The notes below the pieces were generated by a model, which was given only the letters and a program-made list of their open reading frames with translations, did not search any database and was not told the DNA's origin. A stretch of DNA of 64,000 nucleotides from Candidatus Altimarinota bacterium (GTDB taxonomy: Bacteria; Patescibacteriota; Gracilibacteria; BD1-5; UBA2023), in NCBI GenBank assembly GCA_028713325.1, contig JAQTON010000002.1, positions 62,001 to 126,000 of the forward strand, read 5' to 3'. Positions within the stretch are counted from its first letter, which is position 1, and the number at the start of each line of letters is the position of its first letter. This document shows positions 3,176 through 54,756 of this stretch, in pieces. The position numbers and the translations under genes are program-made.

Positions 3176-4705
3176 TTAGTTTGTCGTTCCGATTGCCCAA
3201 ACTGTGTAGGTTCATGAGGACATCTGGAGAGTAAAATCATAAGCACTCGCTGTGTAGGTTCTCGTTGCCGGTGAACCGACGACCGTCTTTGAAGAAATAA
3301 CGTGAGGAACATTCCCATAAACATAAAAAACAAGATCAGAGAACTGATTGGCACCGGCTGCCCCGCTCACTACAAAGAGTCCACCATATCCGACCCGTCC
3401 GATAATAACGGGAGTGGTCGATATCGTAGCACCTGTTGGTTTAATCCATCCGCCATAACCACTATCGCCTATCTTAATATCCCCTCTTACATCCAGCTTA
3501 CTTCACGGATTCGTCGTCCCGATTCCGACATTCCCCGTTCCTCCTTGTATTATCATGGCAGTAACCTCGGTATAGCCCCTTTGTTTATAAGAAAATGACA
3601 AGTCATCATTATAGTGTGTGTTATATCCATAGATGGGATTTACCCAGCCTGATACCATTGACCCTATTTTCCACATATGAGAATCTCCAGTTCCAACAGT
3701 TGTTTCTTCGGTGTCATTAATTCCGATTGCAATATATGATCTAATTGTACCAATTGAATCCGTTTGATTACTCGTTCTTGAAATCCAAACATTATTATTT
3801 GTATTATAATTTCCAATTGATAATTTTTGATTCGGACTCGTCGTTCCAATTCCGACGTTACCAGCAGAAGAAATGACAAATCTATCAACAGCATTAGTTA
3901 TATCTCTAATATTAAAGTTGGTATTATTCACAGTTGTGGATCCTGCCATAAGACCCCATTTAGTACTGCTGCCTTCAATATGAATACCTTGTGCGTTTCC
4001 TGTACTAATATCTCCATGTTTAATATGTAGGGCCGCACTCGGATTCGTCGTACCGATTCCGACATTCCCCCCATTAGGATTAAGAGCCAATGGAAAATTA
4101 CTCGCCCAATTATTTGCATCATGAACTTGAATCCATCCTGGATAGGGAGTTGCTGTCCCGAATGTCCCGAAATCCATTGCGATATTTACCCCTGTATTAT
4201 TTAGTCTCATCATTCCAGCATTTGTATTCCCTGAAGTTGGAGGAAGACTATTTGTACCATTCTCTATATCAAGAGTGGCTCTTGGACTCGTCGTCCCGAT
4301 TCCGACATTCCCTCCGCTTCCGAACACGACTCGATTGCTTCCGTTCCAGAAACGGAGTTCTTCGGAGGTTTCGTCGTGATAAACTCCCCAATGGGGCTTC
4401 GTTCCGGATTGTATGTCGAGTTCGGCATTTCCGGAAACAGATCCTACTTTCACTTTTCCGGCAGTGTAATTGATACTGCTTGTAGCTCCCGTATTCCAGA
4501 GATTTCCTCATCCGGAAACAAGAGAATCGACTCGAGTATTGAGATCATCAATATTTGTAATCATCGCATTCCAGATGCCTATGGTAAGGGGTTGCCCCGA
4601 AGTTGCCGGAGTCATCGTTGAATATGTCGCGTACCCGACCGATAGCACGATGAGAGTGCCGAAGAATACGAGAGCGGAATAGAGAGCTTTTTTGAATGCG
4701 GTCAT
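3176..4705 (-). CDS. anchored surface protein with GIGTT repeats (paralogue 1)
   Basis: 509 aa with UGA=Gly at 4508, 3503 and 3212. The N-terminus (MTAFKKALYSALVFFGTLIV) is one membrane segment, not a pilin signal. A linker follows, then several copies of a GNVGIGTT(S/N)P module at regular spacing through the middle, then a C-terminal globular part. Such NVGIGTTSP repeats are known from phage tail fibres and intramolecular-chaperone-bearing surface proteins. No terminal S74 peptidase is evident. The first ~135 residues are almost identical, at DNA level too, to the paralogue at 4755-5951, while the rest differs. It lies 49 nt after that paralogue on the same strand, probably co-transcribed. 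A role as attachment fibre is inferred. Confidence 0.8.
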
Positions 4706-4754
4706 AGAGAAGAAAGGGAGAAAGTAAAAGATGAATTTGATATACTTATCATAA

Positions 4755-5951
4755 CTAATGAAGTACCGTCTCTGTTAATAGAGAGGCTCCTGCTGGCAAT
4801 GAAGTTCCATAGTACGATAGAACCGGAGTTGATAATGTTTGTCCCAGTATCTCAATATCGATAAGACGGTTGGTTGATTGTACGTGCATTCCTTTGATGT
4901 TAAAAATCAAAAACCCGCCCGTACTATCGACCCAGAAATCCACATCGGGGGTTTGGTCATACCAATAAGAATAACTATTGGGAGAACATTGTGAAAACAT
5001 TCTTGAAATCTGAGATATAGCCAGATACGCTGGTACCGCGGTATGATAGGTTCCATAAACCAGCTTATATTCTTGATTGCAGCTTCCTATAGCATGTCTT
5101 CCAAGCCACATAACATTTAGAGTCACCACTCCTCAATTGTTCTCGGAATTAGAATAGGTTTGGGGCAATGCGAGTTTATAATAGGAATTTGTATCGGTAA
5201 TAGTATGTCTCATAAGAATTTTTCTGTTTCCTGAATAAGGATCAACCAATCCTGCTACATAATGAAATTCCGTCTCGCTTTGCCCACGAATATCAAGTTT
5301 CGCGGTAGGACTCGCCGTCCCAACTCCGATATATCCACCGGTTCCGATAACCAAATGAGCATCCCCAGAACTCCCGCTATGATTGATACGAAATGTACCA
5401 TCATTTTTATTTACCAAAGTGACAGCATCTCCGGTTCTATTGAGTGAAATATAAGCATTTTCCGTGGTTGCATTAATTCCAAGTCCTGATCGTCCATTTG
5501 TATTTGCACCGATATCGAGTGCCCAAGACGGATTACTCATGCCAATCCCCACATTCCCTCCGCTTCCGAACACGACTCGATTGCTTCCGTTCCAGAAACG
5601 GAGCTCTTCGGAAGTCTCGTCGTGGTAGATTCCCCAATGAGGCTTCGTTCCGGATTGTATGTCGAGTTCGGCATTTCCGGAAACAGATCCTACTTTCACT
5701 TTTCCGGCAGTGTAATTGATACTGCTTGTAGCTCCCGTATTCCAGAGATTTCCTCATCCGGAAACAAGAGAATCGACTCGAGTATTGAGATCATCCATAT
5801 TTGTAATCATCGCATTCCAGATGCCTATGGTAAGGGGTTGCCCCGAAGTTGCCGGAGTCATCGTTGAATATGCCGCATACCCGACCGATAGCACGATGAG
5901 AGTGCCGAAGAATACGAGAGCGGAATAGAGAGCTTTTTTGAATGCAGTCAT
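4755..5951 (-). CDS. anchored surface protein with GIGTT repeats (paralogue 2)
   Basis: 398 aa with UGA=Gly at 5754 and 5133; stop TAG. Its architecture matches the downstream paralogue: one N-terminal membrane segment, a shared block ending GSGGNVGIG, then repeat modules (GGYIGVGTASP) and a distinct ~125-residue C-terminal domain with two spaced Cys (GSCNQEY, FSQCSP). I start it at the ATG at 5949-5951, matching the paralogue, rather than the more upstream ATG. A promoter sits just upstream. The unique C-terminus after a conserved anchor suggests exchangeable binding tips. Function unknown. Confidence 0.8.
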
Positions 5952-38289: not shown

Positions 38290-38405
38290 AACTCTGAAAA
38301 ACTCGTTCTTTGAGCTTAAATCTCCGCGTCTTTACTCTCCGTACAGTCGTACGGTTCGCTCAGATGCTCGATTTGCACTCAAATTACTTCGCTTTTGAGA
38401 GTTTT
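38288..38405 (+). repeat. structured 3' element, copy B
   Basis: 118 nt: terminal stem AAAACTCT / AGAGTTTT, inner hairpin CCGTAC-AGTC-GTACGG then TTCGCT. Overlaps the last two bases of the tig stop codon. Confidence 0.75.
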
Positions 38406-38429
38406 ATAACTCATCTTACCATCACTAAT

Positions 38430-39128
38430 ATGGAAAAATTTAAAATTTATCTCATAAATTCAATTCTATTTTTAATATGTCTTACTCTTGTAGTATTCAT
38501 ATTTAAAAATCTGAATGTTGAGAATAATAAAATATTATTAGATTTAATAAAAGCAATAGTTTATCCTTGAGTAATTTTGTATTCAGTACTAATATTCAAA
38601 GATGAAGTTAAATTTTTTATAAAAAATATCAAAATAAAAACCCCTGGATGATTTGAGTTTGATTCACATTTTCCTCCAGTTCAAGAAACAATAAAAGTTG
38701 ACGATCTTAGTCTGGCTGATTTATTTAGTGAAGATACAAACAATCAAGGTAATGGTAGCACTCCAATAAAAATAGAGCAATTTAATGAAGTAAAACATAC
38801 TGCTGATATATTGGCAAAAGAATTGCTTTTTGAAAGAATTTATTATTATATTTATTGAAGCCAAATTAACTTATTAAAAAAATTAAAATTATACTGAACA
38901 GATTGAATGAATTTATTGGATGTAGTAGCTCATTTTGAGATGATAAAAAATATCTATTGAGATTTTTATAAAGATATGAATATAGAGAAATATTTAGAAT
39001 TTTTAGCAGCAAATAATCTGCTTGAAAAAAAAGAAAATTGATGAGTTATGTTTATAAGAATAACTCAGCCCTGAAATGAATTTATAGAATATCTCATGTT
39101 TCAAAAATACATAGATAAAACATATTAA
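38430..39128 (+). CDS. AT-rich two-TM protein with nine UGA codons
   Basis: 232 aa only if UGA=Gly is applied nine times, including two in tandem (EN-GG-VMFIR); stop TAA. Two membrane helices (FKIYLINSILFLICLTLVVF and LLDLIKAIVYP-G-VILYSV). Then a cytoplasmic region with KTP-G-GFEFDSHFPP, an acidic linker and a helical C-terminal domain (ELLFERIYYYIY, KYLEFLAANNLLEKK). That domain resembles a winged-helix-like fold of membrane-anchored CPR/phage-type proteins. Its base composition is far more AT-rich than tig and secA beside it, suggesting transfer, yet from a donor with the same code. Function unknown. Confidence 0.78.
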
Positions 39129-43800: not shown

Positions 43801-44667
43801 ATGTTTTTTCTTATACAGAAACCCCTCGGTCTCTCCAGTTTTTCCGTTATTTCGCATCTCCGAAAGAAGTTCGGGATCAAGAAAGTGGGTCACACCGGAA
43901 CCCTTGATCCGCTCGCAACGGGTCTTTTACTTATGGCAACCGGCAACTCCACGAAACTTATTCCCTACATCGATAAGGCTCGAAAAACCTACGTATTCAC
44001 GGTTCGTCTCGATGGACAGACTCCATCATGCGATTTGGATACTCCAGTCGAATATCTGGATTCTACTCTTTTGGAGCAAGCCCGAGGAACACTTACGCAG
44101 GAAACTATAGAAAAAACGGTACAAACATATTTTTCCGGAAAGATAGAACAAATACCCCCTTCCTATTCTGCCATCCGACTCCAGGGACAGCGAGCGTATG
44201 ATATGGTGCGAGCAGGACAAGAAGTAATTATCTCAAAGCGAACAGTGGAGATATTCTCTTCCAAAATCGTTTCGTTTTCGTTCCCGGAATTGACGATTGA
44301 GATGGAAGTATCGGTCGGAACCTACATCCGATCCATCGCTCGGGATATCGGGGAGAAACTCGGACTTGCGGGGTATGTGACGATGCTTCACAGAAGCAAG
44401 ATAGAACATATGGGGGAATATCTCGCAAAAAAGATAGAGGATGTAACGATCGAAGATATTCTGTCATACGAGCAGATATTTCCGCATTTTGAAACACTCT
44501 CTCCATCGTTCGATATTCTCGAGAAACTCAGGAATGGTCTGAAGTTTCCAAACACTCTTGGTCTGAAGTTAGGAAAAAAATATCTGGTAAAAGACGGGGG
44601 CAAATATATCTCACTGATTGAGGAGCGGGAAGGGGAGGTGAGAATATGTGCAAATAATATCGAATAA
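43801..44667 (+). CDS. truB: tRNA pseudouridine(55) synthase
   Basis: 288 aa, no TGA. Makes pseudouridine 55 in the T-loop of tRNAs. Motif I as [19 protein letters not shown], motif II with catalytic Asp in [15 protein letters not shown], then [15 protein letters not shown], and the [21 protein letters not shown] segment. The C-terminal part is PUA-like ([20 protein letters not shown]). Located directly before rpsO; truB-rpsO adjacency is common in bacteria. Confidence 0.96.
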
Positions 44668-44730
44668 ATTTGCTTTTTGCTCACTTTTCCATATAGTTCT
44701 CGGGTTCCATTTCTGGCGTATTTTCTGGTT

Positions 44731-44759
44731 TTGGAAATTATTTTATTTTATCATAATAC
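44731..44759 (+). promoter_or_regulatory. promoter of rpsO
   Basis: TTGGAA, 17-nt spacer, TAATAC. The -10 box ends 8 nt before the ATG, so the message would be leaderless or nearly so. Confidence 0.5.
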
Positions 44760-44767
44760 CTTGGTCT

Positions 44768-45037
44768 ATGGCACTCGAAAAAAACGACAAGAAGACACTT
44801 ATGGATAAGTTCGCTACTCATAAAGGGGATACTGGTTCTCCAGAAGTACAAGTAGCTATCCTTACAGAACGAATCGAAGATTTGAAACTTCATTTGGATA
44901 TTCATAAGAAAGACAACCACTCACGACGTGGTATCATGCTCATGGTAGCAAAACGACGAAAACTCCTCAATTACCTCAAGAAGAAAGACAATGCTCGATA
45001 TGAGAAACTCATTGCAGAACTCGAACTTCGAAAATAA
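44768..45037 (+). CDS. rpsO: 30S ribosomal protein S15
   Basis: 89 aa, no TGA, typical S15 length. Contains [36 protein letters not shown] and [20 protein letters not shown], the 16S rRNA helix 20-22-binding region. Binds early in 30S assembly. The ATG at 44768 gives the canonical N-terminus; the longer frame upstream is excluded. Predicted start of transcription is 1-3 nt from the ATG. Confidence 0.98.
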
Positions 45038-45049
45038 TCCAAAAATATG

Positions 45050-45081
45050 AAAAATGCAACAAAACCTTTGTTGCATTTTTT
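45050..45081 (+). terminator. terminator of rpsO
   Basis: AAAATGCAACAAA / TTTGTTGCATTTT stem followed by a T-run. Confidence 0.85.
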
Positions 45082-45094
45082 AATGTTCGATTTT

Positions 45095-45123
45095 TTGCAT
45101 TTTATAAAAATTTAGGGTAATAT
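45095..45123 (+). promoter_or_regulatory. promoter of the 408-aa gene
   Basis: TTGCAT, exactly 17 nt, TAATAT; 36 nt before the ATG. Confidence 0.6.
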
Positions 45124-45159
45124 GAACTTGTTATCTTAATTTTTTATACAAAAACACAT

Positions 45160-46386
45160 ATGACAAATAATAAATCAGAAGTAATGACAATCGAAAAATT
45201 TAACGAATCCAATAAAAGTGCCAAGTTAGTAAAAATGACTCAGGCAATCTTCGGTCAATCGAAAGAAAGTCCTGGCAACAAAGATCCCAAAGATTTGGTT
45301 TTCGCAACGGAAGTGGAACGGGAACGATACGTCGATAAGCTTCAGGCTACCGATTTAGGTAGTGATTATAATGAGCTTATTTCAGGACTTACCGAGGCAA
45401 AAAATAATATTCGAGCGGAAACAAAAAAAGAACTCGCCATTCTTAAAGAATTAATGCCGAAAATCAATGCAGGAAAAGGAACGGCTGCCGATGCAAAAAC
45501 TTGGCAGGATGCAGAAAATAAACTTTCTGATTTGGGAAGAAACGCGAGAATGCGGCAACAAGCTGAAACTTTCGAGAGACTTTCAAAAGGTGTGGTTTCA
45601 GTAGTAAAACCAGTAGAAATACCTCAGGTGATAGAGATGAACTCATTACGACGAACAACACCGGTAGTGTCGAAGGATCTAGAGATAGATTCATTTGTAG
45701 AAATTTCAAAAACTCTTAAAAGTTCCAAAAACGTTACAAAAGAAGTACAAGATAATGCTCTTGCGATTGAGGCTGAATTGACAAAGGCATCAAATAAAAA
45801 TGCTGTAAAAGAGAGTATTGGAGTGCTTGTGAACCCAGGTAAGACAAATAAGGATTTTCAAAAATCACTCGGTATCAAAGAAGATGGAATTATCGGACGA
45901 CTTACTATCAATACACTTTTTACAAAGGCAGGATCCGAGTATCGGATACCGGAAGTAAAAAAATCCGCTCCGGTTCAAATAGAGAGAAAGAAGAGTCTTG
46001 AAGAAAAGTCTGATGTTTCGATCGTTTCCCCAGCAGATGTCATCGAAGCGGGGAAAGTAGAAAAGCAGTCAATATCGATCCAAAATCTTGAGACGAAGAA
46101 AGGGGGCGTAATAGGAAAATCGATCAATGATTTCAATGAGTATATCAAAAATAATCATTATAATAATCGTATTATACAAAAATCGGGGTTTGCCAAATGG
46201 ACAACCATCGATTGAGGGGGTGAATTTTCTTTACTGATTACAGAAAAATGAACGGTAGATTATGAAATGAGAATCACTACCGAAAATTTTTTTTATGACA
46301 ATCGAAAATTAACTGCATTTCAAAGTTCTCTTTTGGATATCCTTAAGAAAATGGTAAAAGACAATCAGGAAAATATGAAAAAGTAG
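45160..46386 (+). CDS. large helical protein with peptidoglycan-binding-like motif
   Basis: 408 aa with two UGA=Gly codons near the end (TTID-G-GGEF, TEK-G-TVDY); stop TAG. No signal peptide. Mostly charged and helical (AETKKELAILKELMPKINAG). Residues ~220-250 read VNPGKTNKDFQKSLGIKEDG then IIGRLTINTLF, like a PG_binding_1 repeat (FQKxxGLxxDGxxGxxTxxAL). It opens a block of four to five large unrecognised genes on one strand. It has its own promoter and terminator. Function unknown. Confidence 0.7.
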
Positions 46387-46407
46387 GAGGGTAAATATTT
46401 CTTCATA

Positions 46408-46441
46408 AAAAAAAACGAGTACTTTCTGTGCTCGTTTTTTT
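46408..46441 (+). terminator. terminator of the 408-aa gene
   Basis: AAAACGAGTAC / GTGCTCGTTTT stem (one G-T pair) with T7. Confidence 0.8.
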
Positions 46442-46499
46442 GCGTTTGGAGAAAATATATGGTACGATAAAGGAAATTATATCTCTAATTACTATTTTT

Positions 46500-48488
46500 A
46501 TGTCAGAAACATCCTCTTCAGAAATGCTTCAGAAGAACATTAAGGACAATAATATTCGAGAATTTTATTTTCGCGATAGTAAAGAATTAGCGTTATCCCT
46601 TCGTCAGATTGGACAATGAGATATTACCGAGGCGGATGTGGCTTTTGATAGTTCTATCAGGTTTAAGAACGATGAGTACATCTCTCTCGTGGAAGAACTG
46701 GAAGGAAAGAATATCGAAGAAAAACGAAAGATTCTGCAACAAGTTATACGATGATTGATAGCCAATCTCAAGGCTGAAGTAGTTTTAAATCAATCACAGA
46801 ATATCAGTACTCTCAAATCCAAGATTGAATCTCAAATGAAAGAGCCACTTACTATTGCTTCTATCAACACGCTTCTCGAAAAACTTCCATCAAAAGAAGC
46901 GAACGATACCATCGGACAGTCATATATAGTACAATATCTCTGGGCGAAACTTCGTGCAAAAGAATATATGATGACGATTGAAAATGATTCCGTAAAACTG
47001 CTCGCTAAGGATATCGATGATGCTAATGTACTTCCGTTTACCGATACTATCAATAGTTATATCAGAGCGGGAAGACTTAGTCTCGCGGATTGTACTCAGG
47101 CGATTATGATTGGATCTGGAACGATTGGGGAATATATAGAAACTCGCAAGGCGATGCCGACGGATATTAGCAATGCCGATTATATCGATTATCTTAGAGA
47201 AAAATATACACTTTCTCAGAATTTTACCTCATCTGAGATAGGAGGAAAAAATATCCCGGCTGAAGATAAATCACTCCTTCTTTCCAGTATGGATAAGAAT
47301 TTCTCAAACATGGATATGAAACAGGTAACGAAGAATTATACCGAGATGAAAATACAAGCAAAAGAGGTTTTTGAATCAAAGACTTTTCAGGCTATCGAAA
47401 AGGCTATTGGCGGAACTCCGACCAATGCTAAAGATCTTGCAGATCAAGTAACAAAAGATCCATCCATTCTTGCTGGAAAACCCCTTACGGTCATCGCGGG
47501 AGGAATCGCCGCCATAATGGCTCTCGGACACGAAAAAGGGAAATGATTTTCTCTTTGGACCGGACTCACTCGTGGATTTATGGCACTTATCGCTCTGTTT
47601 CTCGGTGCCGGAGTTGCTAAAGAGTGGGGAATGGATTCGGAGAAGATCATGAAAGAAGTGAAAGATATGATGAAATGAGGAGAAACATCTCCTGTTCCTG
47701 CGGTGGCTTGAGTTCCAGTGGTTGCTTCAAAACCAGAAATCGGGGAAAAAATAGAGGAGAAATCAAAACTTTCTCCGAGTCAACAAATGGCAACCGATAA
47801 GGTAAAGTCAGATCCGCGAATCAAGACCCTTTTTGATGTATCAAGAGATAAAAAAACAGCAACATTCGATACGTATGTAGAGTTTATCAATACTCAATTG
47901 AAGGATAAACCACTCTCGTCACTTGTATCTCCAGTCAATCCAAAAAATAGTATCTTCTCATTGACCGCATTGTTGGATGAGTCGATAATGGTACCACCAG
48001 ATATGGACGGAGTTATCCTGAAAGATATGCTTCGGTTATATTTGACCGGTGTAAGTATTCCGAGATCTTCTTTGGTGCAGGATAAATATAAGCCAATGAT
48101 AGCAGTAAGTGAAAGCAAATATAATTCACAACAAGATACTCTTTTTTCCGCTCTTCAGAAAGTATATGGTGTTACCGATAAGGTGTCGGAAAATATCGAA
48201 TCAAAGATCGCTCATTATAATCTCGTGTTAGAGGGAAATCCTATTGCGAAAGACAATCTGGATATCAAGACCGAAATAAAAACTCCAGGTTATCTCACTA
48301 CTTTGAGTATAAAGGATCCGTCGAAATGGAATTTGAGTTCGATTAAACCCATAAATATAGAGTTTGATACTGGAGGAAAGCTTATAACTACAGAAGTCAA
48401 GATTTCTTGATCTGCGTGATTATTGCCCGTGAATGAAACCTATTCACTCACTCAAAACGGTACTGATATCCTTATTCAATCTGTATAA
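46500..48488 (+). CDS. 662-aa protein, two membrane segments, unknown
   Basis: Seven UGA=Gly codons (for example QIGQ-G-DIT, QVIR-G-LIA, GK-G-FSLW, MMK-G-GETS, PAVA-G-VPV); stop TAA. The N-terminal 330 residues are helical. About residues 333-370 hold two Gly/Ala-rich hydrophobic stretches (LTVIAGGIAAIMALG and FMALIALFLGAGVAKEWG) separated by a short charged turn. A Pro-rich linker leads to a C-terminal domain of ~230 residues, mixed alpha/beta, ending in repeated strands. No signal peptide. No family recognised. The next gene starts 23 nt after the stop. Confidence 0.72.
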
Positions 48489-48511
48489 TTTACTTCCAAA
48501 ACATACGATAT

Positions 48512-50215
48512 ATGTCTAAAAATATTGAACTCAGTGATGGTATGGTAGAAGCTCTTTCTCAAACAAAGGAATGTACAACGTTGCTTGATTACGGTACGGA
48601 AGTACCCGCTTCGATTGTGCTGAGTTTTCTCGAACAAAAATCAAAAATTACGCAACAAGAATGTGCCCAAGCATTAGGGTATAAAAATGATTCAAAAGAT
48701 CTTCTGGATGATCTTAAAAAGATGGTATCACCACAAATTTCCAGTGCAGGGGAAAAAAAAGAGGAACCAAAAGCGAAAAAAGAATCGGAAATGAGAGTTG
48801 ATGTGATTGGTAAGGATTTTGAAACTTTCAGCGAATCCCATGGGTATCTGTATGCTTTTGCCCGTGCCTTTACGATGGGGTATATTCCACAAACGCATGA
48901 CAATAAATTTTTCTCCGAGAAAGAAGCTCCGATTGATCTTGTCCGCAAGATGAAATGGGTAGCATTCGGTTGATTTTTCACCAACGGATCTTTCGAGTCC
49001 ATAAAACGCGGGTCGCTCCATAAAGATATCGCTTCTTTTTACACAAGCGTACAATGAGCAGTGAAGCAGGAAACAAACAATCTGGAAGCCATAAAAAATC
49101 AAGCACAAGCAATTCCAGAAAAATGATTACAGGAAAGTGCTTTGAAAGAATGTGCAGAGAGAAAAAAATGGCTCGATGTATTGTCTGTTGCTATAAACGA
49201 AAATCCCCAGAATCACAACCTCATAAAAAAAGCACTCGGAGAATACCAAAAAGTGGCAAAAATGTCACGAATGGAGTTCATGAAAAAATATGGAATTGCA
49301 TGGACATTGTCTGGAGGCGGAAAATGAGAGAATCTTGCAAAGGAAGTCCATAAAAAAGAAACAGCAGATCCGAAAAATGTTGAAAAAGAAATCACTGAAG
49401 CATCGGAGAAGATGAAGGAATTGCGTGAGTTGATTTTGAAAAAACTCGCCGATCTTGAAGCGAATCCGAATGATCCCAAAAAACGTGCCGAAGTCCTTAA
49501 AGCAATCGAGACAACAAACAAACAAATATCACTCCTTGAACGAGCAGGAGTGGAAGGGCTTTCGAAACTCGACAGCAAACATATAGCTATTCTCGGAACG
49601 AAAAATTCATGGGTTGCGGATTTTCTCAAAGCGAACGGAGGACTCGATAAAACGACGCAATGGTTCAATGAACAAGCGAAATGAAAAGTGGGAAAACCGC
49701 TTCTCTGAGTCGGTATCATCAGTTTATTGTACAATAACAAAGAAGGATTTCTCGATCTCGTAAAGGGCTGAAATGTAGGAGATATGGCGACACGGGTTCT
49801 CGATTTCGGAATGGGAATGGTACCGGTAGCATCATCCGTTCATGAATACTTTATCCTCGAAGACGGATGGTACAAAAATTTCATCCTCGGAGAAAAGTAC
49901 CGACTTTCCGATACCGAGAAAAATTTCCGTCGGGCGTTTATGGTTGCCGGAGTGGTTCCGTTCGGTGGGGCTATCGCAAAAACCGGAGGACGATTGGTTC
50001 TTGCTGGAACGGAAGGAGCGAGCAGAGAACTTGTTGAGACAGGAGGAAAATGGGTGGGAAATAATCTCATTGTAGGAGCAGATGTTGCCGTTACAGGTAC
50101 GCAATCCGTCATGCAACTCGGAACTTATTCCGTTCTCGGTATGAGTGCGACCACCATGACCTACGATCTGTATCAGACTGGAGAAAAATATTATGGAGGT
50201 AAAACCCAAAAATAG
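48512..50215 (+). CDS. 567-aa protein with Gly-rich hydrophobic C-terminus, unknown
   Basis: Seven UGA=Gly codons; stop TAG. N-terminal ~90 residues helical, then a region with GYLYAFARAFTMGYIPQTHD and KMKWVAFG. A long helical part follows (KELRELILKKLADLEANPND). The last ~170 residues have Gly-rich hydrophobic stretches (GKPLLGVGIISLLYNN, DFGMGMVPVASSVHEYF, RAFMVAGVVPFGGAIAKTGG) that could insert into membranes. Continuous with the 46500 gene (23 nt), ending in a terminator. No family recognised. Confidence 0.72.
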
Positions 50216-50242
50216 TATGTATGTACTGAAATAGTGGGAAAT

Positions 50243-50268
50243 AAAAGGCAAATCTTTGCCTTTTATTT
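50243..50268 (+). terminator. terminator overlapping the next promoter
   Basis: AAAAGGCAAA-TC-TTTGCCTTTT then ATTTT. Its right arm contains the -35 box of the promoter at 50256. Confidence 0.75.
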
Positions 50269-50284
50269 TACTATATGCTACAAT
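50256..50284 (+). promoter_or_regulatory. promoter of the second 567-aa gene
   Basis: TTGCCT, exactly 17 nt, TACAAT, ~35 nt before the ATG. Confidence 0.55.
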
Positions 50285-50318
50285 TGGAGAGTAATTTATA
50301 TTCTCACGAGAAATTCTT

Positions 50319-52022
50319 ATGCCAGAAACGACCCCAGAAATTAAAAGAAATCCAGAAATCAAAACTCCGGGAGAGCTTATTAGACGACTCGAAGCGAAGA
50401 GTCAGAAAACTCTTGCCGATAAAGTTCGTACCATCGAACAAACAGTGACCGATGGGACGGAATCCAAGTGGAAGAAACTTCAATCAGAGCTTCCAGATGC
50501 GGAAAAAAAGGAAATTGAAAAAATTCTTAAAGATGAGAATCCTGAAGTTGGAAACCGTCTCAAAACGGTTGCATGAGCTACAGTCTGAGCGACTGGAATA
50601 GCTCTTGCTATTGATCAGCTCGATGGATCCATGGAAAAAACTGGACTTGGTAAACTGGGGATTAAGGAGAGTATCAAAGAGTGGATTACTGAAACACTTA
50701 CGGAAGAACTCCCTCAAGATGCGGATTTTTTCGATAAATTTATGCATAAAATCAAGATGATGTTTCTCACTCCATTTGCAAAGATATTCGGAGTGAATTT
50801 GGCGAAGAAAGAAGGAAAAGGGGACGGTAAGAAGGAGGAAAAAGAGGGGAAAAAAGATCAGGAAGACAAAGAAATGGAAAAATCGTGAAACTATAAATAT
50901 GTTAGTACGATTAAGGCATTTGTCTGATTTTATCAAACGGGAGAATCAAAGGACAAGGCGAAAATACAGGATGTATTCCTTCAAGAAAAATTTCAACAGC
51001 TATCTTTTTCTCAGGCCAAAGACTGTTTTAATTCATATAAAGCAAATAAAAACTTTCCATTAAAAGAAACTATAGGAATTAAGGGCAATATTTCTAATGA
51101 AAATATTTATACAGCCCTTGGGTTATTGTTTCAAGGGAAATCCAATGAACTTATAGAAAAGAAATTTTCTTCTAATGAGAAAAATAAATGAAAATGAATA
51201 GGGGACGAAAAAATTCATACCCTCGTTCAGTGACTTCATGAAGACATAGCCCATTTTGGAGATATTCTCGGTATGGTTCCCGATAATATCGGAGACATTA
51301 AACAGTATGTAGGATTAAAGATATCCAAAACAGAAAATGGAGAATTTGATATATCCTGACCATTAAAAGAAAAAGCAAACTCACTCGGTCTTTCAAAAGA
51401 AATTCTTGTGTACATGGGGGCTATCAGTCCAAAGAAAACTCTTAAAAAAACAGATGAGCTTATTGAACAGATAGATGGGGAAAAGCAGCTTTCCAGTGAT
51501 AATATGAAAACACTTCAGGAAAAAATTCTTCCATTTGCTCATGCAATGCAATCCGAGATTATTGCCAATAATCAGATTAACTTAGGGGTAAATTTTACAA
51601 AAATTTTTAAAAATTCTTCGCTCGATTTCTCTGAAATTCTTAAACTCTATATCATAACAGGAGGAAAAACGAATTTTTCTTCTATGAACTCATTTGAACA
51701 ATTGGGAGTATATGCCTTTATGTCTTGAGTAGCCGGAGATCGCTGAGAGAATGTCGGTGACGGTAATTACTCGTATAGATTAGGTTCCGAACTTTTGAAA
51801 ACTACCAATAGTATTATTCCGGACGGAACAAGAGAAATTGGAATGAAAGTACTTACCTCCGCATGAGAGTTTATCTGAAATACCCTCTGGTCTGCTACCA
51901 AGTGGACTTGGGGAGTTTTAGAGGAGAATCCAGTGGCTGCCGCTGCAATAGTTACATTTTTTGTATTTGGAAATTGGTTACCAAGAAGAACAAGTCCATT
52001 TAATATGGTTCGAGGAAATTAA
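50319..52022 (+). CDS. 567-aa protein with twelve UGA codons, unknown
   Basis: About 12 UGA=Gly codons; stop TAA. It starts MPETTPEIKRNPEIKTPGEL. A short hydrophobic Gly-rich piece at ~residues 86-96 (A-G-ATV-G-ATGIALAI) and a Lys/Glu-rich low-complexity stretch (KEGKGDGKKEEKEGKKDQED) at ~167-187 follow. A helical body follows, and a C-terminal membrane segment (AAAAIVTFFVFGNWLPRRTS). The same gross plan as the 46500 and 48512 genes: helical body plus Gly-rich hydrophobic segments. The AT content rises along the gene. No family recognised. Confidence 0.72.
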
Positions 52023-52059
52023 ATATTAAAAATTAAATATCAAAAACCCAAACAAAAAT

Positions 52060-52815
52060 ATGACCCATCTCACTACTGCAGAACGCGAACTCGACTCTCG
52101 CGGAGCTTCCACCCTTGTGAATACTCTTATGAATCACGGGGAAGATATTCATAAACAGATTTCCTATTGGCAACGATCTGTTAAGGGGACACAAGAATAT
52201 ATGACGCCCTCAGAGAAACTTGGAGCCGAGAAAATCAAGAGCTGGTATGATCTTGAATCAAAGACCCGATCGTATAATGCCCCCGGATGGAAGATTTCTC
52301 CCGAACGAACCGCTTTGTTTGCCGAGTTTCGCAATGATCCGAACTATTCCATTAAAAACATCGTGGAGCTTGCCACGAGGAGTCTCATATTTGAGATGCT
52401 ACGAGCGGATGGAATCGATGCGAAAGTGGCAGTTACGAGCGATTCAGACGATGTTTTTGGAGGTGCTGACGTTATTGCTACCATTAACACTCCCCATGGT
52501 GAAGAGTATGTGGCTTTTGATATCGCCGTATCTGCCAATGCCGAATATCTTGATGAAAAAGAAAAACGCACGGAGACCATCTGCTATGAATTTAATGCGG
52601 TGAAGAATCTAAAAAACAAATCCATTCCGCGAGTGGTTTTTGCTATCCCGCCCCGTATTATGGCGAGATTCATATCCGAGTATATGAAACAGGTTTCGGC
52701 GAAGGGTTTTATAGAGAGAAAAGATATTCTCATGCTTTTCAAATCGGCTGCATCTGACACGGTAAAAGAGTTGTCTGAAAAAGTACATAGCCGAATCGAT
52801 GCCATTATTCATTAA
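52060..52815 (+). CDS. 251-aa soluble protein, possible nuclease fold
   Basis: No TGA. Helical N-terminus (ERELDSRGASTLVNTLMNHG), then LATRSLIFEMLRADGIDAKV, DVFGGADVIATINTP and EEYVAFDIAVSANAEY. The order helix - strand - GGAD(V)I - strand FDIAVS resembles PD-(D/E)XK nuclease cores (Glu/Asp, then Asp, then D/E-x-K), but the Lys is not in the expected place (FDIAVS). It may be an inactive or different fold. It follows the 50319 gene by 37 nt and precedes a 70-aa frame by 14 nt; the three look like an operon. Confidence 0.65.
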   Translation: MTHLTTAERELDSRGASTLVNTLMNHGEDIHKQISYWQRSVKGTQEYMTPSEKLGAEKIKSWYDLESKTRSYNAPGWKISPERTALFAEFRNDPNYSIKNIVELATRSLIFEMLRADGIDAKVAVTSDSDDVFGGADVIATINTPHGEEYVAFDIAVSANAEYLDEKEKRTETICYEFNAVKNLKNKSIPRVVFAIPPRIMARFISEYMKQVSAKGFIERKDILMLFKSAASDTVKELSEKVHSRIDAIIH

Positions 52816-52829
52816 TCACTCACCAACAT

Positions 52830-53042
52830 ATGACAATAAAACACAAAAATCCCAATCAATTTGAGCTTTTTGAGGAAGTGACAAATAGGGAAATGCTCCC
52901 GATTGATTCGGGAGAATCTTCGAAAAAAGAACCGCTTCCTCCAGGTATTATTAATGCTATTGCAAGTGTGAGAAAGCATTTGAAAGAGTTGAACGCCGAT
53001 CCGAAAAAATCCGATCCCGAATCTCTTTCCGTCGATCATTAA
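52830..53042 (+). CDS. 70-aa hydrophilic protein
   Basis: Starts 14 nt after the 251-aa gene; stop TAA. Reads MTIKHKNPNQFELFEEVTNR then a Ser/Lys/Pro-rich middle, an ASVRKHLKELNAD helix and a disordered tail. No TGA. Its last 86 nt overlap the antisense end of the nucleotidyltransferase gene. Small accessory protein of unknown role. Confidence 0.6.
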   Translation: MTIKHKNPNQFELFEEVTNREMLPIDSGESSKKEPLPPGIINAIASVRKHLKELNADPKKSDPESLSVDH

Positions 53043-53742
53043 TATGGAGTTTCACCATATCGTCATTCACCAAAATCCCTTCCGTTCCATCGGTGGGGAT
53101 TCTTTTTGCTATGAGTTTCTTTGATACAAATCCGAGAATGGTGTCTTTGAAAGAGAGGAAGGGAGCGAAGAATTCTCACATCTGCGTTATCCATAGATAT
53201 CTTTGTGTCAGAAGAAGAAATATCCTATTTTCTCTGAGAAGATTTGCTCGTTCTTCTTCGGATAATTCAAGCTGGAGAGTGTCTTCGTAAAATACCTTGT
53301 TTACTTCCATAAAACGCCCATAGGTGTAATATTGGTTATAAATAGGTTTGAGCGAAGATATCCAGTATGCCATATATACATCATTTTCTATGGCAATTTC
53401 TTTGAGAGAGAGATTTTTATCCGTTATAAAGAATGGAAAACAGAACTTTCCCGCCTCATTGCCCAGTTTTGTTCGTACGCCGAGAAGAGTCGCCATAGAG
53501 AGAACAAGAGTTCGTACTATCCAGAGTCTGCGAGGTGCGGTGACGATGAAGAGATCGATATCGGATTCTTTGTGTGTAGCGTACATAGCAAGGGAATTGG
53601 AAACCGCCACCATCCGAAGTCAGGGAATCCATTTGATGGATTGGACAAAATCTCGGGTTTTTTGAAAAAGTTCCTGTTCCTCGGGAGAAGGGGATTTTTT
53701 CACGCCGAGAAAAGATTCGAGTTTCTTTGTGATATTTTGCAT
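52957..53742 (-). CDS. nucleotidyltransferase-domain protein
   Basis: 261 aa with two UGA=Gly codons (WIP-G-LRMVAVSNS and TQM-G-EFFAP); stop TAG. After a 40-residue helical start comes VAVSNSLAMYATHKESDIDL followed by FIVT, the polymerase-beta-like GS-x10-D-x-D motif with Gly replaced by Asn and catalytic Asp pair in SDIDLF. Then a helical region (LWIVRTLVLSMATLLG; YMAYWISSLKPIYNQYYTYG) like the CPR/archaeal COG1708-type families. The 3' end overlaps the 70-aa gene antisense, so the exact stop is less sure. Substrate unknown. Confidence 0.8.
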
Positions 53743-53809
53743 GGACGAGGTAGAAAGATGGGTGAAAGTGAGGATTATATGAATTTTTTCTTTTTTTCAA
53801 ATTTTTCCT

Positions 53810-53838
53810 TTGACTCTGTTTTTTCTTTGTGTTATAAT
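53810..53838 (+). promoter_or_regulatory. promoter of the 293-aa anchored protein gene
   Basis: TTGACT, exactly 17 nt, TATAAT; 37 nt before the ATG. Confidence 0.65.
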
Positions 53839-53874
53839 TTTCTTTACTGGAACTTTTAGCCTTTTTTCAATATT

Positions 53875-54756
53875 ATGACACCGCCAAAACGATACATCCA
53901 CGAAGATATAGGAGAAGAGAATCTTTGGATAGATCTCTCTATTCTTACGTTTTTGCGTGAGGAAATGCTCCTTGGAAATCTCGATTATGTATCCCTTCGG
54001 GAGTCACACAAACAGGGGCTGTTTTCCTCGGATGTCGATTGTTCTTGGGAACGTTTTCGTCGCAGGGCACTCTACCAGGTATGACTCGGGTTTGCGGTAC
54101 CGCAAATCATTTATGGTCCGGAAGGGGAGAAGATAGACAGTAAAAAGCATACGGGGCATCTCTGTGCTCTCCGTATCACTCCATTCGGTTTTATGCAGAT
54201 ATCGGAATTGGAGAAAGAGATAAAAAAATACGAGGGATTTAATCGATATATCACGAAGATAAAAGCATGGAGCGAGAGGATTGTGGGGATGAAATGAGGA
54301 ATTGTTGTTGGTACTACGACATTTTTGATTATTTGTATATTTGCTTTTAATATAAAGGTGAGTGCAATAGTTCAGAAAATACCAATACTCAGTTCCATTA
54401 TAGATACGAGCATTCTTAAGGAATTTGAGGCAATCAATACGAATGATGAATTTTATCAGGCTATGATGAGTGATTCCGGAACCCCCTCGTCATGATTGAC
54501 AAACGCTGCCGGTAACAGGGAATATGAAAGCACCACGGTTCCCGTATCTGAAATTGCCGCAAAACTTGTTCCGAAGAACATAGTCATTCCGAAAGCCATT
54601 CAAAATATTCTCCCAGAAAAAGCAAAAATTGAAGACATGACCGTACAAAATATTTCTCCAACGGAAAAGCTTTTCAAAATTACTCTTGATACTGGAGTAA
54701 CTCGGTACGTACAGGTAAAAAGAGAGAGTGAAAACTACATAATAGAAGGGAGATAG
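53875..54756 (+). CDS. 293-aa single-TM protein, unknown
   Basis: Three UGA=Gly codons (YQV-G-LGFAV, VGMK-G-GIVV, TPSS-G-LTNA); stop TAG. The N-terminal ~135 residues are cytoplasmic and helical (IDLSILTFLREEMLLGN; YVSLRESHKQGLFSSDVDCS) and may form a winged helix. One membrane helix (GIVVGTTTFLIICIFAFNIK) at ~142-162, then an outer region with a Thr/Ser-rich linker and a small beta domain (KLFKITLDTGVTRYVQVKRE). A regulator-like inside with outside sensor is plausible, not shown. A strong promoter precedes it. Confidence 0.7.

What the first reader, a model, noticed from the sequence alone, without database searches (positions are those of the whole stretch)
45160..53042. A block of large, unrecognised proteins on one strand
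Genes at 45160, 46500, 48512, 50319, 52060 and 52830 total ~2,500 codons with about 28 UGAs and no family I can name. Three of them share a plan: long charged helical body plus Gly/Ala-rich hydrophobic segments without signal peptides; one has a peptidoglycan-binding-like repeat; one is possibly nuclease-like. Tight spacing (23 nt, 37 nt, 14 nt) and few internal promoters suggest co-function. A secreted or injected toxin set, an envelope structure, or a lineage-specific contact apparatus are all possible.
Basis: partly seen in the sequence, partly recalled or inferred. Interest (0 to 1): 0.65.

Follow-up and report, generated by a model that had tools for sequence, protein, structure and literature searches.

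The report
Fast-evolving giant-protein locus of Gracilibacteria
A cluster of large, unnamed proteins in a tiny, probably host-dependent bacterium turns out to be a conserved but constantly reshuffled locus, in which proteins with membrane-seeking segments are repeatedly found beside cell-wall-cutting enzymes, so it may be part of how these bacteria attack or attach to other bacteria.

Summary
In detail: under code 25, five large genes plus a doubtful sixth (about 2,525 codons, 28 UGA) lie at 45160-53042, and no Pfam, NCBIfam, PHROG, PADLOC or PDB family reaches its cut-off. Close relatives are named Candidatus Gracilibacteria. The block is not one operon: strong terminator-like hairpins separate g1 | g2-g3 | g4-g5(-g6). 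g2 and g3 are one protein in relatives. The g3 C-terminus carries a PT-TG-like 'pre-toxin' element, found in 40 of 353 genomes of the class and essentially nowhere else in the phylum sample. The locus keeps its place (rpsO | locus | nucleotidyltransferase) in several genomes, but its content is mosaic: three parts of g2 have three different nearest relatives, while flanking genes stay 56-80% identical in the genus. Within four genes of PT-TG proteins, seven peptidoglycan hydrolases of three unrelated families occur, none with a hydrophobic N-terminus. Best reading (0.4): a modular, non-Sec, wall- and membrane-breaching contact weapon. It works somewhat like polymorphic toxins or phage ejection proteins but fails their membership tests: no C-terminal toxin domain recognised, no immunity gene, no virion genes. 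A prophage is disfavoured. Function is inferred; both structure predictions failed.

The parts
43801..44667 (+). truB, upstream anchor of the locus (75-80% identical in the genus)
   Evidence: sequence
44768..45037 (+). rpsO (ribosomal protein S15), immediate upstream neighbour
   Evidence: sequence; same truB-rpsO order in G006, G001 and G003
45048..45082 (.). terminator-like hairpin between rpsO and g1
   Evidence: z -7.1
45160..46386 (+). g1, 408 aa, first gene of the locus, degenerate peptidoglycan-binding half-domain (residues 231-253)
   Evidence: gene at the same place in G006 has PF01471 over cut-off
46409..46441 (+). terminator-like hairpin between g1 and g2
   Evidence: z -6.1
46500..48488 (+). 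g2, 662 aa, mosaic helical protein; N-terminal half of the fused protein of relatives
46500..46784 (+). g2 residues 1-95: genus-specific N-terminal module (65% to G003, 57% to G001)
46785..47774 (+). g2 residues 96-425: core module nearest to another genus (G017, 45.5%)
47466..47633 (+). Gly/Ala-rich hydrophobic hairpin of g2 (residues 323-378)
47775..48485 (+). g2 residues 426-662: C-terminal module nearest to G010/G025/G019
48512..50215 (+). g3, 567 aa, PT-TG-bearing half of the fused protein of relatives
49802..50011 (+). PT-TG-like motif region of g3 (residues 431-500), conserved across the class
50238..50269 (+). terminator-like hairpin between g3 and g4
   Evidence: z -4.5
50319..52022 (+). 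g4, 567 aa, helical protein with two hydrophobic segments (81-101, 532-555), mosaic
52060..52815 (+). g5, 251 aa, PD-(D/E)XK-like acidic pattern (E103, D130, D131, D137, D154, S158), no catalytic lysine seen
52830..53042 (+). g6, 70 aa, doubtful open frame overlapping the NTase 3' end
   Evidence: no relative found
52957..53742 (-). conserved nucleotidyltransferase-like gene, convergent downstream anchor of the locus

Best explanation
The block is the local version of a locus specific to the class of the window's genome (Gracilibacteria and relatives). Shown: it encodes large, mostly helical proteins without signal peptides; a PT-TG-like element and Gly/Ala-rich hydrophobic segments recur; the chromosomal place is conserved while content is exchanged module by module; relatives of g3 are repeatedly encoded beside peptidoglycan hydrolases or peptidoglycan-binding proteins that also lack signal peptides. 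Inferred: the proteins leave the cell by a route other than Sec when it touches another bacterium; the partner opens the wall; the hydrophobic segments, kept inside a soluble helical body as in pore-forming colicins, insert into a membrane and make a lesion or passage. Fast mosaic change would then reflect an arms race with hosts or prey. The patescibacterial type IV secretion apparatus, whose VirB4-like ATPase and pilins this genome encodes, is one possible route; nothing here links it to these proteins.
For: PT-TG (PF14449) matches 7 of 13 g3 relatives, best E 3.2e-8, and the motif is aligned across the class. Relatives in 40/353 class genomes; outside the class only 3 marginal hits among 380 sampled phylum genomes. 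Hydrolases near PT-TG proteins: glucosaminidase in G031 and G146, M23 in G146, G162, G183, NlpC/P60 in G106, G181; 8 of 165 genes within four positions carry a hydrolase, 3D or peptidoglycan-binding hit against 5 of 577 elsewhere, Fisher p 0.002. First locus gene has PG_binding_1 in G006 (over cut-off), G001 (E 2.8e-4) and weakly here. No hydrophobic N-termini (sequences). Same place in G000, G003, G004, G006, G009, G016, G017, G022. Mosaicism with z up to 102 while truB is 75-80% and the NTase 56-68% identical in the genus. VirB4-like ATPase and T4SS pilins in the genome.
Against: The window itself carries no recognisable peptidoglycan hydrolase, only a degenerate binding half-domain, and g3 itself has no Pfam PT-TG hit, only its relatives. 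No toxin domain is recognised after the PT-TG element and no immunity gene was found. Hydrophobic segments are marginal (mean hydropathy 1.1-1.75). Both structure predictions are too poor to use (mean pLDDT 47 and 36). No export signal is known, and no expression, localisation or activity data were used. The hydrolase domains used as queries were taken from loci near PT-TG proteins, which biases that count. Code-11 relatives (L094-L099, L102) show no adjacent hydrolase and several sit beside housekeeping genes.
Confidence: 0.4

Rival explanations
1. A lineage-specific structural or contact apparatus of the producer's own envelope: the giant proteins form a scaffold or channel in its own membrane, and the hydrolases remodel its own wall to let the structure through, as specialised wall enzymes do for secretion systems and pili. 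Variation would come from phage or host pressure on an exposed structure.
For: Conserved chromosomal place; several large proteins usually occur together; wall enzymes are nearby; code-11 relatives sit at a stable site beside ndk and folP, like a vertically inherited function; no immunity genes.
Against: PT-TG is a pre-toxin element in known systems; the module swapping is stronger than expected for a purely structural complex; the wall enzymes lack signal peptides, so they would need another way out.
Confidence: 0.3
2. Cytoplasmic or inner-membrane proteins of unrelated local functions that happen to be adjacent, evolving fast because constraint is weak; the PT-TG and wall-enzyme links are incidental.
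For: Terminator-like hairpins split the block; g5 occurs independently elsewhere; g2-g4 are AT-rich with low GC3.
Against: g2-g3 are fused and followed by a g4-type gene in relatives; recurrence of the PT-TG giant proteins over many genera; wall enzymes of unrelated families near PT-TG proteins.
Confidence: 0.15
3. An anti-phage or anti-element defence locus, with g5 as a nuclease effector.
For: A g5-like domain is fused to a STAND-like NTPase in G004 (nSTAND_NTPase5, E 2.5e-4, below cut-off); the locus varies as defence loci do.
Against: No PADLOC hit for any of the six proteins or the fusion; wall enzymes do not fit; g5 is absent from several versions of the locus.
Confidence: 0.08
4. A prophage, phage remnant or domesticated virion-ejection cassette.
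For: Large helical proteins with wall-hydrolase partners resemble tape-measure and internal virion (ejection) proteins; the hydrolase domains match PHROG endolysin and tail families.
Against: No relative of g2 or g3 in IMG/VR, none of g3 or g4 in phage records; giant proteins have no PHROG hit; no capsid, terminase or tail genes recognised beside them; stable chromosomal place.
Confidence: 0.05

Closest known systems
Polymorphic toxins with the pre-toxin domain PT-TG (PF14449; general class in PMC3482391)
   Same: PT-TG-like element, long protein body before it, modular exchange between relatives, conflict-like patchy distribution
   Different: no recognised export domain at the N-terminus, no recognised toxin domain after PT-TG (in the order the motif lies mostly 95-160 residues before the C-terminus), no immunity gene found; several giant proteins plus, in relatives, a wall hydrolase per locus
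Phage ejection (internal virion) proteins and tape-measure proteins with wall-hydrolase domains (own knowledge)
   Same: large, helical, charged, with hydrophobic segments, no signal peptide, wall hydrolase close by or in the same protein
   Different: no virion genes, no sequence relation, chromosomal locus at a fixed place
Pore-forming colicins (own knowledge)
   Same: soluble helical body with a Gly/Ala-rich hydrophobic hairpin, as a physical analogy
   Different: no sequence relation, no translocation or receptor domains recognised, structure not established
Patescibacterial type IV secretion system (PMC12102498)
   Same: present in the genome (VirB4-like ATPase, T4SS pilins); a contact machine that could export such proteins
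   Different: different proteins, not adjacent to the locus; no substrate link shown
Giant surface proteins of Vampirococcus lugosii (PMC8080830)
   Same: large proteins in a predatory bacterium of a neighbouring lineage, thought to act at host contact
   Different: those are 1392-4163 aa, membrane-located, with adhesion domains such as WD40, PKD and fibronectin; these are smaller and lack named domains

Membership tests
PT-TG polymorphic toxins | PT-TG domain | tested here: inconclusive
   7 of 13 relatives match, best 3.2e-8; g3 itself has no Pfam hit, but aligns over the motif in the class profile
PT-TG polymorphic toxins | variable toxin domain C-terminal to the pre-toxin domain | tested here: not met
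   in the order's g3 proteins the motif lies mostly 95-160 residues from the C-terminus, no toxin family recognised
PT-TG polymorphic toxins | N-terminal trafficking or export domain | tested here: not met
   no such Pfam hit, no hydrophobic N-terminus
PT-TG polymorphic toxins | immunity gene next to the toxin gene | tested here: not met
   no immunity family among the locus genes; an unknown immunity family cannot be excluded
Phage ejection or tape-measure proteins / prophage | virion genes in the neighbourhood and relatives in phages | tested here: not met
Anti-phage defence systems | match to a known defence protein model | tested here: not met
PD-(D/E)XK nucleases (g5) | conserved acidic core with catalytic D/E-x-K | tested here: inconclusive
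   invariant E103, D130, D131, D137, D154, S158 but D-x-A-x-S in place of D/E-x-K; no Pfam or PDB relative
Type IV secretion substrates | export through the apparatus | not testable with these tools
   machine genes found in the genome; no substrate signal known for this system
Pore-forming colicin-like proteins | helical bundle enclosing a hydrophobic hairpin that forms a pore | not testable with these tools
   sequence shows hydrophobic segments only; both structure models unusable

The most novel reading that the evidence does not exclude
A so far undescribed contact apparatus of the class: several giant, non-Sec helical proteins and an interchangeable wall hydrolase assemble into a wall- and membrane-crossing passage into the host or prey cell, analogous to phage ejection proteins but cellular, with parts exchanged module by module to follow changing hosts.
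Probability: 0.2. Interest if true: 0.85.

Novelty: new variant of a known kind. Interest (0 to 1): 0.6.

Why it matters
How Gracilibacteria and their neighbours breach or feed on host cells is unknown, and no Gracilibacteria (BD1-5) lineage had been cultured according to PMC11452946. A conserved, class-specific, rapidly reshuffled locus that combines membrane-seeking giant proteins with wall hydrolases is a concrete candidate for the host-contact machinery. It could be sought in cultured relatives and tested by expressing single genes in laboratory bacteria.

Tried and rejected
Prophage: viral contigs were scanned with g2, g3 and a g3 profile, phage records with g3 and g4, nothing found. Defence: PADLOC empty. 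Known structures: none by sequence; no fold search was run because both AlphaFold models are poor (47 and 36 mean pLDDT). A first genome-contig scan with g2 found no named relative; a profile of three close relatives named three Candidatus Gracilibacteria MAGs. g4 of the window and the large last gene of G001/G003/G004 (g4b) looked like counterparts by position but are not detectably related. A large p1 family of the locus (A5) is absent from this genome. The 3D/peptidoglycan-binding gene beside the locus in G019 and G025 also occurs away from it in G024 (L131), so I do not count it as support. Rfam: nothing in 44000-54500.
Full report
What is there. The window is G000:C5:62001-126000 of a 1.05 Mb, five-contig genome read with code 25. 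Relatives of g2, g3, g4 and g5 in other genomes show these are genes.

No named family. Pfam, PHROGs, NCBIfam and PADLOC give nothing over cut-off for the six proteins, and the PDB gives nothing convincing by sequence. g2 and g4 have clear Gly/Ala-rich hydrophobic segments, g3 a weak one, and none has a hydrophobic N-terminus like a signal peptide.

Not one operon. Hairpins followed by U-runs sit between rpsO and g1, g1 and g2, and g3 and g4, with z-scores of -7.1, -6.1 and -4.5 against shuffles. The likely units are g1; g2-g3; g4-g5(-g6). The consensus scan for promoters is no better than chance. g6 has no relative and overlaps the end of the convergent gene.

g2 and g3 belong together. In G001 (L034:4275-7247) one 990-residue protein carries the g2 N-terminus and g3; in G031 one 957-residue protein carries a g2-like region and g3 (profile comparison). 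A g4-type gene follows directly in G017 and G031.

PT-TG-like element. The best conserved part of g3 is near its C-terminus. A profile of seven sequences (A1) finds it in 40 of 353 genomes of the class at E 0.001 or better; at that threshold well under one false hit is expected over the whole set. Among 380 genomes sampled over the phylum only three from other classes match, marginally and outside the motif. Of 13 g3 relatives, 7 match Pfam PT-TG (best 3.2e-8) and 4 match DUF4112. The motif lies mostly 95-160 residues before the C-terminus in the code-25 relatives; in most code-11 relatives it sits further inside proteins of up to 1,300 residues.

Fixed place, changing content. In the genus the locus follows truB-rpsO in the window, G004 and G006. 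A nucleotidyltransferase-like gene closes it, convergent, in the window, G003, G004, G016, G017, G022 and G009, beside very large unnamed proteins. The flanking genes are well conserved in the genus (truB 75-80%, nucleotidyltransferase 56-68%). The locus genes are not. g2 is a mosaic: residues 1-95 match G003 (65%) and G001 (57%) of the same genus; residues 96-425 match G017 of another genus best (45.5%, z 102) and not G001 or G003 (z 2.9 and -0.1); residues 426-662 match G010, G025 and G019 only. g4 residues 1-170 match G017 best (46%, z 37.5), the rest matches G019 best (z 22). G001, G003 and G004 carry a different large last gene that is not detectably related to g4. In G005 the large-gene set is elsewhere. 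g1, g2 and g4 are AT-richer than most neighbours, and GC3 of g1-g4 is 0.31-0.37.

Wall enzymes beside the relatives. Within four genes of PT-TG proteins there is a glucosaminidase in G031 (E 5.7e-33) and G146, an M23 peptidase in G146, G162 and G183, and NlpC/P60 in G106 and G181. These are three unrelated families, and none of the proteins starts with a signal-peptide-like stretch (sequences). The count of hydrolase, 3D or peptidoglycan-binding genes is 8 of 165 near against 5 of 577 elsewhere (Fisher p 0.002). The queries came largely from near genes, so this p-value is optimistic. The only M23 protein among the distant genes starts with a hydrophobic stretch like a signal peptide. In the genus the first gene of the locus carries a peptidoglycan-binding domain: over cut-off in G006, just below in G001, degenerate in the window.

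g5. Eight sequences share E103, D130, D131, D137, D154 and S158, a pattern like PD-(D/E)XK nucleases but without the lysine. A g5-like domain is fused behind a STAND-like NTPase in G004. A stand-alone g5 follows the large genes in the window and in G004 but not in G003, so it is an optional member.

How it may work. The combination of a pre-toxin-like element, marginally hydrophobic helical segments, exchangeable wall enzymes without Sec signals, class restriction and mosaic change at a fixed place is best explained by a contact-acting set that breaches wall and membrane (0.4). Export is the weakest step. The genome has a VirB4-like ATPase and eleven T4SS-pilin hits over cut-off, as described for the phylum (PMC12102498), but nothing ties these proteins to it. 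The main rival is a structure of the producer's own envelope (0.3), which the same facts allow. A prophage is unlikely, and no known defence family was recognised.

Limits. Both structure predictions failed. Presence counts depend on draft genomes, several of which break at this locus. No expression or localisation data were used. The statistics on mosaicism use shuffled sequences and local alignments, not a phylogenetic test.

Noticed in passing
L173, L174, L176 (G006, G001, G003): Contigs of three related draft genomes end 0.36-1.35 kb after truB, and the G001 nucleotidyltransferase contig begins 331 bases from that gene: the locus seems to be an assembly break point, as a strain-variable region would be.
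   Followed up: partly
L038:7003-10221: In G004 a 1072-residue protein joins a STAND-like NTPase (nSTAND_NTPase5, E 2.5e-4, below cut-off) to a g5-like C-terminal domain, reminiscent of defence proteins, with no PADLOC hit.
   Followed up: partly
window 3176-5951 (minus); L157:1626-3710; L159:14165-14842: A family of proteins with a similar N-terminus (MTAFKKALYSALVFFGTLIVLSVGYA and variants) occurs at least four times in this genome, twice in tandem in the window.
   Followed up: no
window 38364-39128: Open frame with 9 of 12 glycine codons as UGA and 23.5% GC, far below its neighbours; possibly foreign or not a gene.
   Followed up: no
G000 contigs C1, C3, C4: Seventeen matches to the T4SS pilin family PF18895, eleven over cut-off, in several clusters: a large number for a 1 Mb genome.
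   Followed up: no
L103:10208-10714: A DUF4112 protein (E 2.2e-17) lies between the PT-TG giant protein and an M23 peptidase in G183; some g3 relatives also match DUF4112, so the two families may be related.
   Followed up: no
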